From NCBI GenBank assembly GCA_026770025.1, contig JAMXDE010000025.1:620001-684000 (forward strand): DNA of 64,000 nt, given 5' to 3'. The notes beneath the pieces are model-generated. The model ran no database searches. It was given only the letters and a program-made list of their open reading frames with translations, and was not told where the DNA came from. The first letter of the stretch is position 1. Every line of letters starts with the position of its first letter. Both the position numbers and the translations under genes were made by a program. This document shows, piece by piece, positions 50,663 through 59,224 of the stretch. This DNA is from Craspedostauros australis. Lineage: Eukaryota; Bacillariophyta; Bacillariophyceae; Mastogloiales; Achnanthaceae.

Positions 50663-50984
50663 CTGCACCATCCCAGAATGGTACTGGGTCGTTACACAAG
50701 GGTGCATACCCGGACGTGCACAGCTTCGGCACACTACATGCATGACAGCGGTGGAATCATTCATAAAATAATAATATCGTTTTCTCTAGTTCGTCGTTGT
50801 ACATTGACAGAATTGACACGTAGAGGCTCATTGCATACAGGTGTCGCTCCTACTCTGTCCGTTGTCGTCGCTCTTCCTCTCTGTTGAAAGGTGAATGTCG
50901 ATAGAAGTCGCGACGTCGCCAACCAAAATGAAAGTGTGGTCTTGTGGGAAGCTTCATTGGCGCTGATCGAATTGTCCAAAAAGC
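50663..50984. other. Spacer between cyclase no. 2 and tRNA-Asp
   Basis: No coding region seen. It should include the cyclase 3' UTR and the 3' flank of the tRNA gene. Confidence 0.5.
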
Positions 50985-51055
50985 TCCGACACGGGGAATC
51001 GAACCCCGGTCTCCCGCGTGACAGGCGGGGATACTAGCCACTATACTATGTCGGA
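50985..51055 (-). tRNA. trnD-GUC: tRNA-Asp (GTC)
   Basis: Read on the minus strand, this 71-nt stretch folds as a complete cloverleaf. The acceptor arm is TCCGACA...TGTCGGA (seven pairs). The anticodon stem CCCGC/GCGGG holds the loop CTGTCAC with anticodon GTC, and the T-arm is CCGGGGTTCGATTCCCCG. The D-arm contains TAGTGGCTAGTA, including the A-box. No intron and no encoded CCA, as expected for a nuclear gene. It lies between the cyclase gene and the right arm of the inverted duplication. Confidence 0.97.
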
Positions 51056-53793: not shown

Positions 53794-53798
53794 GAGAG
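53794..53798. repeat. Target-site duplication GAGAG (left)
   Basis: The five bases directly outside the element at its left end match the five directly outside its right end. The intact AAA copy has a single GAGAG-type sequence at the matching place. Confidence 0.93.
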
Positions 53799-54088
53799 TG
53801 TTGTAACAACAGCGCTCTCGCCGGTCTCTACCCGGCTTTGAGCCGAAGGACAGTTCCAGACGATGTTACTGTGTGATTGTATGGGTGGTAAATCAGATAG
53901 TTACAATTGATTTTTATGGTGTTTGTTTGCTCTCTCTCTCTTTGTTGTTGTTTGCTGTTGCTGTGATCTTATCGCTGACTTGGCGCAGCGATTGTGTGGT
54001 CTCGGTTGGTTTTCCTTGCCTGGTCTGGTCTTCGTCGGGATGTTCCGAAACCACAGGTAGACCGGGAATGTAGGTGTCTTCCCCAACA
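53799..54088 (-). repeat. 3' LTR of the Copia element (element orientation)
   Basis: 290 bp, identical to the other LTR as read. The last 58 codons (stop included) of gag-pol are encoded within it. A purine-rich stretch, ATCAAAGGAGTG, directly before its start in element orientation is the probable polypurine tract and is also coding. Confidence 0.94.
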
Positions 54089-57000
54089 CACTCCTTTGAT
54101 CCCACCAAGGCTTCCTTGTATGACTTGACCTTGGTGGTATCACCAGCATGGTGGTTGAGGATGATATCCCGGAACATTCTGAATTTGGTCCCTTGCAATG
54201 GCTTTGTGAAGAAATCTCCGAGCATGTCATCAGTGGGACAGTACTCGACGGTGATGTCTCCTTTTTCAATTCGGTCTGTGGCAAAGAAAAACCGCATGCT
54301 GATGTGACGAGTTCGTTTGCTGCTTGAACCCCGACCATTTTGTTCCAGGAGCATTGCGCTCTGGTTGTCCTGATAGATGGTCGTGGGACCAAGGTCGACA
54401 CCTTGCTCCTGTAGGAAATAGCGTGCCCATAACACCTGCGGCATGACGTCGTCGACTGCCACAAGTTCGGCTTCTGTGGAGCTCCTGGTGTTCAGTTTTT
54501 GTTTGGATGATGTGGCGTATATCACACCTCCTCCTGCGGACAGACATGCTCCTGTGTGGCTGCGCATGTTGTCATGGACACCGAATGATCCGTCAACCCA
54601 CCATCTGATGTCCTTGAGCGCCGACCCACCGAGCGCAAGTGTTAGGTTGCGTGTTCCGCGTAGGTATTTGACAACACGGGCGAGTTTCTTGTAGTCGTCA
54701 GTGTCAGGGGATTTGACCCTAGTACATAGAAAAGACACTGCGGTTTGGATGTCTGGTCTCGCTCGCTTGCAGAGGAATAGCAGTTTTGCGACGTTGTGAT
54801 GAAACATGTCGGCAGTGTCACTGTCTAGCTTGGTCGGATTGTCCTCATTGATGTTGAATAAGTGATTCGCAGCTGGAGTTGCTGCTATGCCCGACATGTC
54901 CCCAGGCACTCCTTCAATGATGCCATCGATGTATTCGGCCATGTCGATGATGATTTTGTTTGGCGTAGAGTAGTCGAGTCGCATCCCCAAGTATTCGTGT
55001 ACCTTGCCTCGAGTGACTGTTAGCGGTGTTCTCTGTCCATATGCTTTGTTCAACATACCGATGACATCACTCACGACATGCTCATCCACATGTGATATTT
55101 TCAGATCGTCCACATGCCATACCACTGTGCACTGTTTACCGTTCACAACCTTGTTCGCGATGCACCAGTCATATGGGTTAATAGTGAACCCGTCCTCCTC
55201 CAGCGTTGTGGTGAGGTGTTTCCACCAGCATAGAGCTGCCTTGAGTGTACCATAGAGTGCCCTTGTGAGCTTGACGTATATAGCCGATTGTCCACGTTTC
55301 TTGTGGATGTACTCATCATACACGTCTGGGGCGATTTTCCCCAGGATTTCAGCCATTCTTCCCTCGATGAGAACGTGCACAACATCGTCATCGTCGAATT
55401 TTGCGTGCAGAAATGCGCCTGGCACATCAACGGTTGCGACATCACGATTTTCTTGTGCATCAATAACACAAGTGAACATGAGTCCCAACAGTGATACTGT
55501 GGGCGAGCTCGTCTCATCTTTTGTCATGTATAGACGCTGCTTGCGCCCATCAGCACATCCACGACCCTTGATAATCCCACTCCTTTTCTCTTTCAAATAC
55601 ATGAGATATCGCAGTGCCTTCCTTCGCTCGTCATGAGTGAGCTGATGCCAGTGCTTGGGCTCGAAGCCCTCCATATCATGGACCTGTTGGAGTTCTCTGC
55701 TGATTGCTTCTTCGCCTCGCTCATGGAATTGTTTCAGTCCTTGTTTCCAGTTCATCTGCTCTGTAACAAAAGTGCATGCCGATGTCTCATTTTCCGGTAT
55801 TCCGTTGTTCGGTGCACCCAACTGTATCATCGTGGCGTGTGCTCCATCCCGTCCTGTATGGTGTAGCTTGTAGTAGTCCACTCGTGGACCGCGTCTTGTA
55901 CGCATGCGATTGTTGTCTGTGTTGGAGTGTTGTTCTTCTGTTGGAGTGTTGTCTCGGTTCCCGCGTTCATTTCCGACGATTGGGGTTGGGGTGATGAGTG
56001 TGTTGTTATCGCGTGAGTCGGCGGCGATATCGATATCGTCATCTTCTTCGTCGGCGATCACATCGCAATTATGATCGGTTGTTTCGCTGGAGACACTGTC
56101 ATCTGTCTTGCTTCCACCATCGTCATAGTCGTCGCCGTCATGGTTGCTGCAGTCGTCATGGTTGTTGTCATCATCATCATCATCGTCAGCACCATCATCG
56201 CGATCATCTTCATCATTGCCATCATCGCTGGTATCATCCATCTCGTCATCCAGTGATTCGTCGCTTGCACTTGATGCATTGTCTTCGTCTTCATTGTGGC
56301 CTGCATCGTTGTTGCCGGTGTCGGGGTATAGTTCGATACCATGACTGGTGATAAAATGGAGGTTCTTCTCGGATTTGGATGCCTTGGCCAGTGCATGTAC
56401 GTGGTCTATCACTGATTGTGGCATGGGGATCTCTGTCCAGCTGCGGCGATGAATGCAGCGTCCGGTAGTCAGGCTGTAGAAGACGTAGCCACCTTGGATG
56501 TTGCCGGATGGTCGCAGAGCGATTGCTCCAACGGTGCGTGGTTGCATGGAGTTATCGTGCTGTTCATGTGTTTGCGCGTAGCTGCCGAATTCGATTCTGC
56601 AGTGCGCGTTGTAATCGAGCTTTCTCCCGACCACAATTTCTGCTGGGCTCATGCGCTTTGATACGCCATCAGGATGTGGGAACATATTCATCCAGTAGAC
56701 TGAATGATACACCATTTCAATGATGAGCGATGGTGGGTACGCCTTGAATGGTAGAGCATGGTATGTAGATCGAGTGCGCTCCTTGATTGTTCGAATATAG
56801 CGCTCGACTTCCGGCACGTGTTCATCACGAGAGGTCACGTTGATGCTCACACCAACCTCAGACATGTCACCACGGAGCGAGCTGAACTGGTTGTCAGTCA
56901 GCATGATACCAACCCTGAACCCTCGTTGCTTGTACAGCTGGATGATGTTCCTGAACTGCTTCACGAGCGTTGCATTCGACTCGGAGTTGAGCTTGACGAC

Positions 57001-58896
57001 GGTTCCGAACTTGAGGTGTTTGGATACGGACACCAGAAATGGAATACCGTTCACCTTCATGATATCCGCAGAGAGCACGACGTCACGATATTGCTGCATG
57101 ATACTGGCTGGCAAATGTGCGATCTTTGCTCGGACGGCCGGGGGTACCTGCCTTGTTGTCTTTCCTTTGAGTGATGGTACATCCGGACCGAAGATGAGCT
57201 CGGCAGTGCGAATGTCCTTGGTTGTGATGGGACAGTTCGGTATCATCCCATTCTTCACGTACTTGATGTAGTTGCGCGTGGTTGGATGTCCAATGCGCTT
57301 CTGAATAGATCTAGCAAGTTGGGCCTGCGAGTAGTCGTAAGTGGAGAAGCTATTTTTGTTATCTTCCACTGTAGTCACGAGAGCTACTTCGCTGGGGCTT
57401 GCCATGTTCAGGTAGTACAGTCCGCGTTGGGACTCGACGAAGGTCCGGGTTGATCCATCCGGCTTGTGTACCACAAAGCTGTTGGTACCACTGCTGTCAT
57501 ATGTGACGCGGAACATGGATTTCACGCGGCTGAGTGAGAGGATGTTGGCCACGCCGGATGGGTGGTACCACACTGCGCCATATCCAGGGAGTGTACCCTT
57601 CTTGTTGGTGGTGGTGGTGCCAGCGTTGCAATGGATGGTCAGGGCGGTGTCAACATCATGGATGTCGCGGATGAGTTGTGCGTTGGAGAAGACGTCGACC
57701 GTGGATTGATTGTCCAGCAGAATCCAAGTGTTGGGAATAGGGCTGTGCTTGTTGTGATTGTGGTGGTTGGTGAGGAAAACGAACTCATCTTCATCATCCC
57801 CCACAGTCGTCGCATGGACGAGGACAGTTCCATTTGCATGGTATTTGGCATGACACTGGTCGGTTGTGTGGTTGCTGCGACCGCATCGCTCACACTTGGT
57901 GTCGTTTTCGTGTGTGTTCACGAATGCCATGCCTGAATCCTTTGGAGTGTTGTGACTTGGAAGATTCCTTGGATCCTTCGACCAGTGGTTCAGCATTGTG
58001 AACGCCTCCGCCATGGTCTTGGGGTATCGATCATCACCTTTGAGGTAGTCGTTCTGTAGTTCTTCGATGAGGGATCCGTACCGGTGGCGATCTGCGCCGA
58101 GGATGAAAGCAACGGCAAGGAAGCGCTGCTTGGCATCCTTCCTGATCTCCTTTCGCTCTTCCTCGCTTGGGTCTTTGAGGTTACGCTCCTTGAGGACATG
58201 AAGGGCTGCGCTGGTCACCTCTGTGACATTGGTCATGAGTGTGTCGTTCACATCGACAAGATTGATGAAGGATTCGTAGTATTCTTGTGTGGTTTGTTTT
58301 CTCTTTTGTTGGAAGGTGAGAAGGTCCTTCATGATCATGTGTGCGGCGACCAAGTGGTGTTGGTGTGTTTGGAAATTGAAAACAACACTCTTTATCATCT
58401 TGATGAGGGTGATTGTGTCCATGCTGCTGTTGGCTGCAGAGTATTCTGTCATCTCTTGTAGGCGGCTTCGCATGATCTCTGAGCACTGGCCCCAGATCAG
58501 GGCGTACACCTTTTGGAGGTCCACCTCGGCGTTGGCAAGCCGGGTGGTGTAGAGGGCATACTTGCGCTTCCACTTTTCCTTCTGAATCTCGGTGGCGTTG
58601 CTCGGGTAGTCGGCTGGCTCGGGGATGGACGGCGGCTGGAGGTTTTCAATGGCGAGTGCGACGGCTGGTCCGTATTCCGATCCGACGTACACCTTGACTG
58701 CATCGAGTGTGCGAGTGAATTCATCGACCTGCTTGGATCGGTTCGCTACACAGTCGAAAACGAATCCCTTCAGGCCAGAGCATGCTCCTTCGAACTTGGC
58801 TGGACGCACGAACGGTGGTCGATGTGGCTTGTTTGTTTTGTTGTTGCTGTCCGGCGCTGACTTTCTCGGCACAGCCGGCTTACTCTCGGTGCTCAT
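53914..58896 (-). CDS. Copia gag-pol polyprotein
   Basis: One frame of 1,660 residues from the first ATG, 34 bases after the 5' LTR. Gag occupies about 1-330. A CCHC zinc knuckle follows (Cys335, Cys338, His343, Cys348). The aspartic protease has the unusual active-site string LLDNQSTVDVF (Asp near 395), where DSGA or DTGA is common. The integrase has a zinc-binding start (KRIGHPTTRNYI) and DDE residues near 605 (SADIMKV), 665 (LTDNQF) and 700 (EVERYIRTIKE). An extremely Asp-rich linker (about 855-950) precedes reverse transcriptase (VDVPGAFLHAKF; active site HVDD near 1262) and RNase H (WWVDGSFG near 1432, SSTEAELVAV). The C-terminal 57 residues lie in the LTR. No frameshift or stop interrupts it. 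Confidence 0.94.
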   Translation of the reverse strand: MSTESKPAVPRKSAPDSNNKTNKPHRPPFVRPAKFEGACSGLKGFVFDCVANRSKQVDEFTRTLDAVKVYVGSEYGPAVALAIENLQPPSIPEPADYPSNATEIQKEKWKRKYALYTTRLANAEVDLQKVYALIWGQCSEIMRSRLQEMTEYSAANSSMDTITLIKMIKSVVFNFQTHQHHLVAAHMIMKDLLTFQQKRKQTTQEYYESFINLVDVNDTLMTNVTEVTSAALHVLKERNLKDPSEEERKEIRKDAKQRFLAVAFILGADRHRYGSLIEELQNDYLKGDDRYPKTMAEAFTMLNHWSKDPRNLPSHNTPKDSGMAFVNTHENDTKCERCGRSNHTTDQCHAKYHANGTVLVHATTVGDDEDEFVFLTNHHNHNKHSPIPNTWILLDNQSTVDVFSNAQLIRDIHDVDTALTIHCNAGTTTTNKKGTLPGYGAVWYHPSGVANILSLSRVKSMFRVTYDSSGTNSFVVHKPDGSTRTFVESQRGLYYLNMASPSEVALVTTVEDNKNSFSTYDYSQAQLARSIQKRIGHPTTRNYIKYVKNGMIPNCPITTKDIRTAELIFGPDVPSLKGKTTRQVPPAVRAKIAHLPASIMQQYRDVVLSADIMKVNGIPFLVSVSKHLKFGTVVKLNSESNATLVKQFRNIIQLYKQRGFRVGIMLTDNQFSSLRGDMSEVGVSINVTSRDEHVPEVERYIRTIKERTRSTYHALPFKAYPPSLIIEMVYHSVYWMNMFPHPDGVSKRMSPAEIVVGRKLDYNAHCRIEFGSYAQTHEQHDNSMQPRTVGAIALRPSGNIQGGYVFYSLTTGRCIHRRSWTEIPMPQSVIDHVHALAKASKSEKNLHFITSHGIELYPDTGNNDAGHNEDEDNASSASDESLDDEMDDTSDDGNDEDDRDDGADDDDDDDNNHDDCSNHDGDDYDDGGSKTDDSVSSETTDHNCDVIADEEDDDIDIAADSRDNNTLITPTPIVGNERGNRDNTPTEEQHSNTDNNRMRTRRGPRVDYYKLHHTGRDGAHATMIQLGAPNNGIPENETSACTFVTEQMNWKQGLKQFHERGEEAISRELQQVHDMEGFEPKHWHQLTHDERRKALRYLMYLKEKRSGIIKGRGCADGRKQRLYMTKDETSSPTVSLLGLMFTCVIDAQENRDVATVDVPGAFLHAKFDDDDVVHVLIEGRMAEILGKIAPDVYDEYIHKKRGQSAIYVKLTRALYGTLKAALCWWKHLTTTLEEDGFTINPYDWCIANKVVNGKQCTVVWHVDDLKISHVDEHVVSDVIGMLNKAYGQRTPLTVTRGKVHEYLGMRLDYSTPNKIIIDMAEYIDGIIEGVPGDMSGIAATPAANHLFNINEDNPTKLDSDTADMFHHNVAKLLFLCKRARPDIQTAVSFLCTRVKSPDTDDYKKLARVVKYLRGTRNLTLALGGSALKDIRWWVDGSFGVHDNMRSHTGACLSAGGGVIYATSSKQKLNTRSSTEAELVAVDDVMPQVLWARYFLQEQGVDLGPTTIYQDNQSAMLLEQNGRGSSSKRTRHISMRFFFATDRIEKGDITVEYCPTDDMLGDFFTKPLQGTKFRMFRDIILNHHAGDTTKVKSYKEALVGSKECVGEDTYIPGLPVVSEHPDEDQTRQGKPTETTQSLRQVSDKITATANNNKERESKQTP

Positions 58897-58911
58897 CTTT
58901 GCTGATAGAGC

Positions 58912-58929
58912 AAAAATCAATTGTAACTA
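58912..58929 (-). promoter_or_regulatory. Putative primer-binding site, complementary to the element's own LTR
   Basis: In element orientation the first 18 internal bases after the 5' LTR are TAGTTACAATTGATTTTT. This is where a tRNA 3' end should pair (normally starting TGG). Instead they are perfectly complementary to an 18-base segment within the LTR at 59029-59046. The 18-nt length and zero spacing from the LTR match a primer-binding site rather than a chance repeat. Confidence 0.75.
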
Positions 58930-59219
58930 TGTTGTAACAACAGCGCTCTCGCCGGTCTCTACCCGGCTTTGAGCCGAAGGACAGTTCCAGACGATGTTAC
59001 TGTGTGATTGTATGGGTGGTAAATCAGATAGTTACAATTGATTTTTATGGTGTTTGTTTGCTCTCTCTCTCTTTGTTGTTGTTTGCTGTTGCTGTGATCT
59101 TATCGCTGACTTGGCGCAGCGATTGTGTGGTCTCGGTTGGTTTTCCTTGCCTGGTCTGGTCTTCGTCGGGATGTTCCGAAACCACAGGTAGACCGGGAAT
59201 GTAGGTGTCTTCCCCAACA
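58930..59219 (-). repeat. 5' LTR of the Copia element (element orientation)
   Basis: 290 bp; should hold promoter, R and U5. In element orientation its last 99 bases, between the self-complementary arm and the internal region, contain further small stems such as CGGCTCAAAGCCG. No clear TATA box at a standard distance was found. Confidence 0.94.
59029..59046 (-). promoter_or_regulatory. LTR segment that could act as self-primer
   Basis: In element orientation it reads AAAAATCAATTGTAACTA, the exact reverse complement of the primer-binding site, 99 nt upstream of it. Its counterpart in the other LTR is 53898-53915, where it overlaps the gag-pol stop codon. If element RNA starts at or near this segment, its 5' end could fold back and prime reverse transcription after a cut at the segment's end. 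Confidence 0.65.
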
Positions 59220-59224
59220 GAGAG
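59220..59224. repeat. Target-site duplication GAGAG (right)
   Basis: Partner of the left target duplication; five bases is the usual length for Copia integrases. Confidence 0.93.

What the first reader, a model, noticed from the sequence alone, without database searches (positions are those of the whole stretch)
58912..59046. Copia element whose primer-binding site matches its own LTR: candidate self-primed retrotransposon
The 18 bases abutting the 5' LTR with no gap are a perfect reverse complement of an 18-base LTR segment ending 99 nt upstream. A tRNA-type site beginning TGG is absent. In Tf1/sushi elements (Ty3/gypsy type) the RNA 5' end folds back onto such a site, is cut, and primes reverse transcription. 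I do not know of this mechanism described for the Copia superfamily in diatoms. In retroviral logic the LTR segment would sit at or near the RNA start, leaving about 99 nt as U5. The element looks recently active, so whatever primes it works.
Basis: partly seen in the sequence, partly recalled or inferred. Interest (0 to 1): 0.9.

Follow-up and report, generated by a model that had tools for sequence, protein, structure and literature searches.

The report
Self-primed Copia retrotransposon clade in diatom
This jumping gene most likely primes its own copying with a piece of its own RNA instead of a borrowed transfer RNA, because in its relatives the two matching pieces have changed together while staying complementary.

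Summary
On the minus strand, 18 nt abutting the 290-bp 5' LTR (58912-58929) are a perfect complement of an LTR segment (59029-59046); a 19th pair uses the last LTR base.

The proposed covariation test gives a strong yes. I read 20 5' ends of this element and its kin in the same genome. In 18 of 20, all 16 core pairs are Watson-Crick (288 of 288 cells, no G-U), although the arms come in six different sequences. Eleven of the 16 core positions show changes on both sides, and sliding the partner by one column destroys the signal. The two exceptions have 2 and 5 core positions that are mismatched or G-U.

Within one arm type the surrounding LTR has diverged by 27-36% with no change in either arm. 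No tRNA gene was found at the 28 of 44 arm matches examined. Four other Copia families here carry a site matching tRNA-Met, a positive control.

Best reading: Tf1-like self-priming in a Copia lineage, with a primer of about 15-18 nt that rewrites the PBS at each cycle. Self-priming in Copia was already predicted for the plant TAR lineage (PMC6317226); my searches found no report in diatoms. RNA start, cleavage and cDNA are untested.

The parts
58930..59219 (-). 5' LTR, 290 bp (TGTTGG...CAACA on the sense strand)
   Evidence: identical to 3' LTR
53799..54088 (-). 3' LTR, 290 bp
58912..58929 (-). PBS arm, flush with the 5' LTR; a further pair uses LTR base 58930
   Evidence: covariation
59029..59046 (-). 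LTR arm in the 5' LTR, proposed self-primer
   Evidence: covariation
53898..53915 (-). the same LTR arm in the 3' LTR
58930..59027 (-). LTR stretch between the arm and the LTR end (about U5 plus the rest of R, boundaries inferred), with a small conserved hairpin
53914..58896 (-). single gag-pol reading frame, ATG to TAA, 1660 aa; its stop overlaps the 3' LTR arm
54910..55614 (-). Copia-type reverse transcriptase RVT_2 (PF07727), E 6.3e-15
57820..57897 (-). gag-like zinc knuckle (PF14787, 23.6 bits, under the curated cut-off of 27)
53794..53798 (.). target site duplication GAGAG, one side
59220..59224 (.). target site duplication GAGAG, other side
54089..54097 (-). purine-rich stretch AAAGGAGTG next to the 3' LTR, candidate polypurine tract (inferred)
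   Evidence: read from the sequence

Best explanation
The element and its clade prime their own reverse transcription. The genomic RNA starts at or near the LTR arm (inferred). The leader folds so that the arm pairs with the PBS (pairing supported by covariation). The RNA is cut just 3' of the arm, probably by the element's RNase H as in Tf1 (inferred). The freed oligomer of about 15-18 nt, ending ...A-3', primes minus-strand DNA, whose first base is the T opposite the last LTR base (inferred from the geometry). Plus-strand synthesis then copies the primer into the PBS of the new element (inferred from the strict Watson-Crick match), so a change in the LTR arm is carried to the PBS in the next cycle.
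For: Flush 18+1 nt complement. Of 20 5' ends, 18 have all 16 core pairs Watson-Crick, 288 of 288 cells, with six arm sequences. 11 of 16 core positions have changes on both sides; covariation score 0.537 against 0.149 for shuffles (0 of 500 as high) and at most 0.085 when slid by 1-3 columns. Arms unchanged within a type while the LTR around them differs by 27-36% in 8 of 10 pairs of copies. The match ends at the last LTR base on one side and near a CATA/CACA edge on the other. No tRNA at the arm matches examined, while the same approach finds tRNA-Met genes for other Copia families of this genome. Three insertions with identical LTR pairs show that the scheme works.
Against: No RNA or cDNA data: start, cleavage and primer are not seen. 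Two of 20 5' ends have imperfect arms (L095: one G-U and one mismatch in the core; L020: one G-U and four mismatches), both perhaps decayed. The arm types are only six and the rows are related, so independent joint changes number about five. In one search the number of pairs with double changes (29 of 500 shuffles as high) and the number of pair types (394 of 500) do not stand out from shuffles. All rows come from one genome.
Confidence: 0.88

Rival explanations
1. A tRNA or tRNA fragment (nuclear or organellar) primes, and the LTR match is incidental or a captured copy of the primer.
For: Four other Copia families of this genome have a PBS that matches tRNA-Met(CAT) genes, so fragment priming exists here. 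The tRNA survey is incomplete: 63 of 1610 candidates scored, and 16 of 44 pattern places were not fetched.
Against: Six different PBS sequences in one clade, each matched by its own LTR. No tRNA at the 28 of 44 places examined; the 16 others share one sequence with two places that were read. No arm match on the tRNA-dense contigs C83, C89, C90.
Confidence: 0.02
2. The LTR-PBS stem is real but serves another role (packaging, dimerisation, translation or silencing), and priming uses something unknown.
For: Covariation alone shows pairing, not its use.
Against: One arm sits exactly at the PBS position with its end at the LTR boundary in all rows; 0 G-U in 288 cells fits copying from a primer better than selection for a stem; no other PBS candidate is seen.
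Confidence: 0.03
3. The arm lies upstream of the RNA start (in U3), so only the 3' LTR copy is in the RNA, and priming is by the 3' end of the RNA or in trans from another transcript.
For: The arm is in both LTRs. An A-rich CATAAAA at the arm's 5' edge could be read as a TATA-like box, which would put the start downstream (my reading).
Against: The distance from arm to LTR end hardly varies (97-102 nt in the 14 rows), fitting a cis fold as in Tf1; CATAAAA is replaced by CACACAAA in three copies (L032, L033, L035).
Confidence: 0.07

Closest known systems
Tf1/sushi self-primed elements (Ty3/gypsy; Tf1, Tj1)
   Same: PBS complementary to the element's own LTR/RNA segment, no tRNA match found (Tf1 and Tj1 from passages of PMC7175516 and PMC4600332).
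   Different: Those are Ty3/gypsy; this has a Copia-type RT. [quoted passage not shown] here the match is 16-19 nt and RNA start and cleavage are not tested.
Plant TAR lineage of Ty1/copia (Houba, Osr-1)
   Same: Ty1/copia with predicted self-priming (PMC6317226, section 13 and passages).
   Different: Land plants; I have not seen their PBS or arm sequences, and kinship to the present clade was not tested.
Fungal GalEa Copia elements with a Conserved Hairpin Site
   Same: Copia without a tRNA PBS (PMC5445492, section 10 and passages).
   Different: Their site is a short palindrome with a nearby partner; the authors found no LTR complement. Here the partner is in the LTR and the site is not a palindrome. 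Other families of this genome look more like that case.
CoDi elements of diatoms
   Same: Diatom Ty1/copia-like elements with a similar size and LTR range (PMC2806351, passages and section 18).
   Different: In that main text 'tRNA' and 'self' have 0 occurrences and PBS occurs once, as a buffer; the CoDi group of the present clade was not determined.

Membership tests
Ty1/copia superfamily | Copia-type reverse transcriptase (RVT_2) | tested here: met
   PF07727, 55.9 bits over the cut-off 31.6
Ty1/copia superfamily | integrase upstream of the RT | tested here: inconclusive
   No integrase family at E <= 0.1 in Pfam; invariant D610, D667, E697 upstream of the RT in a 23-row alignment could be an integrase core (my reading)
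Ty1/copia superfamily | 5-bp target duplication and TG...CA LTRs | tested here: met
   for three copies
Self-primed LTR retrotransposons (mechanism class) | PBS complementary to the element's own LTR segment, conserved by covariation | tested here: met
Self-primed LTR retrotransposons (mechanism class) | LTR segment at the 5' end of the RNA | not testable with these tools
   no transcript data
Self-primed LTR retrotransposons (mechanism class) | RNase H cleavage that frees the primer | not testable with these tools
   needs biochemistry
Tf1/sushi (Ty3/gypsy) | Ty3/gypsy-type pol | tested here: not met
   the only RT family found in Pfam is RVT_2
Plant TAR lineage | RT kinship to TAR elements | not tested
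   no TAR sequence at hand
Fungal GalEa with CHS | palindromic site after the LTR, no LTR complement | tested here: not met
   LTR complement present; the sequence after the LTR end is no palindrome
tRNA-primed Copia | PBS matches a tRNA of the host | tested here: not met
   (28 of 44 places examined); positive control

The most novel reading that the evidence does not exclude
A Copia lineage of diatoms, separate from Tf1/sushi and from plant TAR, has become independent of host tRNA. Its LTR encodes a 15-18 nt primer that rewrites the PBS at every cycle, so both arms evolve by copying rather than by slow compensation. It shares one genome with two other priming arrangements, a tRNA-Met-fragment site and a palindromic site.
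Probability: 0.6. Interest if true: 0.72.

Novelty: new variant of a known kind. Interest (0 to 1): 0.64.

Why it matters
Self-priming is established for Tf1-type gypsy elements (as reviewed in PMC7175516, passages) and was predicted for one plant Copia lineage (PMC6317226). Here several diverged subfamilies provide covariation, which is hard to explain without pairing of LTR and PBS, and the lack of G-U pairs points to the PBS being copied from the primer. The clade looks large: 1557 protein relatives at E <= 0.001 among 7993 scored candidates in a public set (it includes relatives more distant than this clade). One genome with three kinds of priming site would let the origin of tRNA independence be compared directly.

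Tried and rejected
The pattern AAAGCAATTGTCACTA (18 of 44 places) looked like another family with the same PBS. The two places read (L027, L028) are one repeat whose coding sequence looks to me like a DNA transposase; rejected as chance. Viral contig scans for relatives with DNA found none. A 5' end for the degenerate C19 relatives gave no arms (L067). L030 and L036 first looked like misses: next to L030's gag the 5' end is missing, and a 5' end with perfect arms was found at C29:207472, which I take to be the same element split by an insertion (inferred); L036's 5' end was not found, only a 3' LTR (L097). I considered that CATAAAA is a TATA box (third rival).

Full report
What is there. The window holds a complete LTR retrotransposon on the minus strand, 53799-59219: two identical 290-bp LTRs, a 5-bp target duplication GAGAG, and one intact 1660-aa gag-pol frame with a Copia-type RT (RVT_2, E 6.3e-15). 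Eighteen bases flush with the 5' LTR are a perfect complement of an LTR segment 98-99 nt from the LTR end, and a 19th pair uses the last LTR base. Shuffled LTRs reach at most 11 nt of complement (1 of 5000). The leader RNA folds around this helix, z -4.49.

Copies. The same genome holds two more full copies, on C36 and C30, with other target duplications (AACAC, GCGAC); in each of the three the two LTRs have 0 differences. So the element moved recently. Exact copies of the core 16-mer occur at 14 places, all in this family: nine in the three copies, five in other LTR pieces.

Relatives. A protein search of the genome gave a clade of copies whose longer matches are at 71-78% identity in RT, some fragments at 48-75%, and then other Copia families near 27%. 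I fetched 15 5'-end pieces. Thirteen hold a perfect inverted repeat of 16-17 nt at the same place and spacing; the other two pieces do not hold the 5' end. Pattern scans with the other arm sequences led to three more 5' ends, read. One (L096) is probably the true 5' end of an element that had looked like a miss. One (L094) has a sixth arm type in which one base is changed on both sides relative to its nearest type. One (L095) has two changed positions.

Covariation. All 20 5' ends in which I had read both arms, including L095 and the decayed L020 (found, read), went into one alignment. Over the inner 16 pairs, 18 of 20 rows are entirely Watson-Crick: 288 of 288 cells, no G-U, six arm sequences. 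L095 has one G-U and one mismatch there, L020 one G-U and four mismatches. Eleven of these 16 positions have changes on both sides; the tool's tally over 19 columns is 12, the extra one being a chance G-U in one row at an edge column. The covariation score is 0.537 against a shuffled mean of 0.149 (0 of 500 as high) and at most 0.085 when slid by 1-3 columns (17 distinct rows). One search gives the same picture on the first 13 rows. The number of pairs with double changes alone does not stand out from shuffles (29 of 500 as high, 45 of 500), nor does the number of pair types (394 and 369 of 500); the score, the paired fraction and the number of doubly changed cells do. The rows are related and the arm types are only six.

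Constraint. Among the five copies that share the arm AATCAAACAAACAGTAT, eight of ten pairs differ by 27-36% in the LTR between arm and LTR end and by 44-48% upstream, with 0 changes in either arm; the other two pairs are close copies. Between the five arm types compared there, the arms differ by 25-56%. The arms are therefore frozen within a type and exchanged together between types.

Why copying, not only pairing. A stem kept by selection alone should show some G-U pairs; 0 of 288 cells in the 18 matched rows are G-U. By the established scheme of LTR reverse transcription (recalled), the PBS of the new DNA is copied from the primer. If the primer is LTR-encoded, any LTR arm change that still primes is written into the PBS. 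This explains both strictness and joint change. It is inference.

tRNA test. The core 16-mer at up to 2 mismatches has 44 places. 28 were fetched or lie in the window. ARAGORN found no tRNA at any of them; the one tRNA in the fetched loci lies 4.7 kb from the hit, and the window's only tRNA, at 50983-51055, is elsewhere. The 16 not fetched carry one identical 16-mer shared with two places that were read. Scans for four other arm types (up to 1 mismatch) give no hit on the tRNA-dense contigs C83, C89 and C90; those hits were not tested one by one for tRNA. Positive control: families d and e carry PBS CGCTTCCTCTGCGC; its complement has 40 places, of which nine in eight small stretches were read; three of these nine lie in tRNA-Met(CAT) genes, and others lie at the expected place of families f and h. 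The tRNA list scored 63 of 1610 candidates, so it is not complete.

Other Copia families. Of nine families sampled by 5' and 3' pieces, LTRs were delimited in six. Four (a, b, c, g) have right after the LTR CGTTTCGAAACG, CGTTTATAAACG or CGTTTTAAAACG, and no LTR complement of 8 nt or more. Two (d, e) have the tRNA-Met-type site; f and h have it by pattern without a delimited LTR. Family i was not resolved. An RT tree of 13 rows puts the five self-type rows in one clade (100/100), with long branches between the groups, so deeper relations are unsure.

Known work. Tf1: the first 11 RNA bases pair with the PBS and RNase H cuts between bases 11 and 12 (PMC7175516, passages). Tj1 is likewise proposed (PMC4600332, passages). 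In Copia, self-priming was predicted for the plant TAR lineage including Houba and Osr-1 (PMC6317226, section 13 and passages). Fungal GalEa lack a tRNA PBS and have a palindromic hairpin site; the authors found no LTR complement (PMC5445492, section 10 and passages). The main diatom Copia paper does not treat priming in the passages and section that I saw (PMC2806351). Seven text searches on self-priming, Copia and diatoms (open-licence papers only, mostly listings seen) gave no report of self-priming in diatoms.

Verdict. Self-priming is the best explanation at 0.88. Shown: complementarity, covariation, constraint, recent insertion, no tRNA at the matches examined. Inferred: RNA start at the arm, cleavage, priming, copying of the primer into the PBS.

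Noticed in passing
G000 Copia families a, b, c, g (L044, L046, L048, L056); e.g. C4:1567630, C3:1707457: Right after the LTR end (...CAACA) stands a palindrome CGTTTNNAAACG with centre CG, AT or TA, in three of four families extended by the last LTR base. The pattern CAACACGTNNNNNNACG has 683 places against 129 for the reversed control; of the 100 listed, 86 carry one of these three centres. It recalls the palindromic site of fungal GalEa (PMC5445492) and might prime by pairing of two RNAs (speculation).
   Followed up: partly
L050/L069, L070/L052, C4:2688203, C62:219017; tRNA genes in L072, L073: Four other Copia families (d, e, f, h) carry CGCTTCCTCTGCGC at the PBS position, the complement of the D-arm region of tRNA-Met(CAT) genes: apparently priming by an internal tRNA fragment.
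   Followed up: partly
53914-54088; L033; L015: The gag-pol frame runs through the 3' LTR's first part and stops at (window, L015) or inside (L033) the LTR arm.
   Followed up: partly
G000:C1:1833687-1844211 (L032, L033): Two elements in tandem that seem to share the middle LTR: arms at 1833687, 1838942 and 1844197, spacing 5255.
   Followed up: no
G000:C83 and C89: Two contigs with the same series of tRNA genes, probably two copies of one organelle genome.
   Followed up: no
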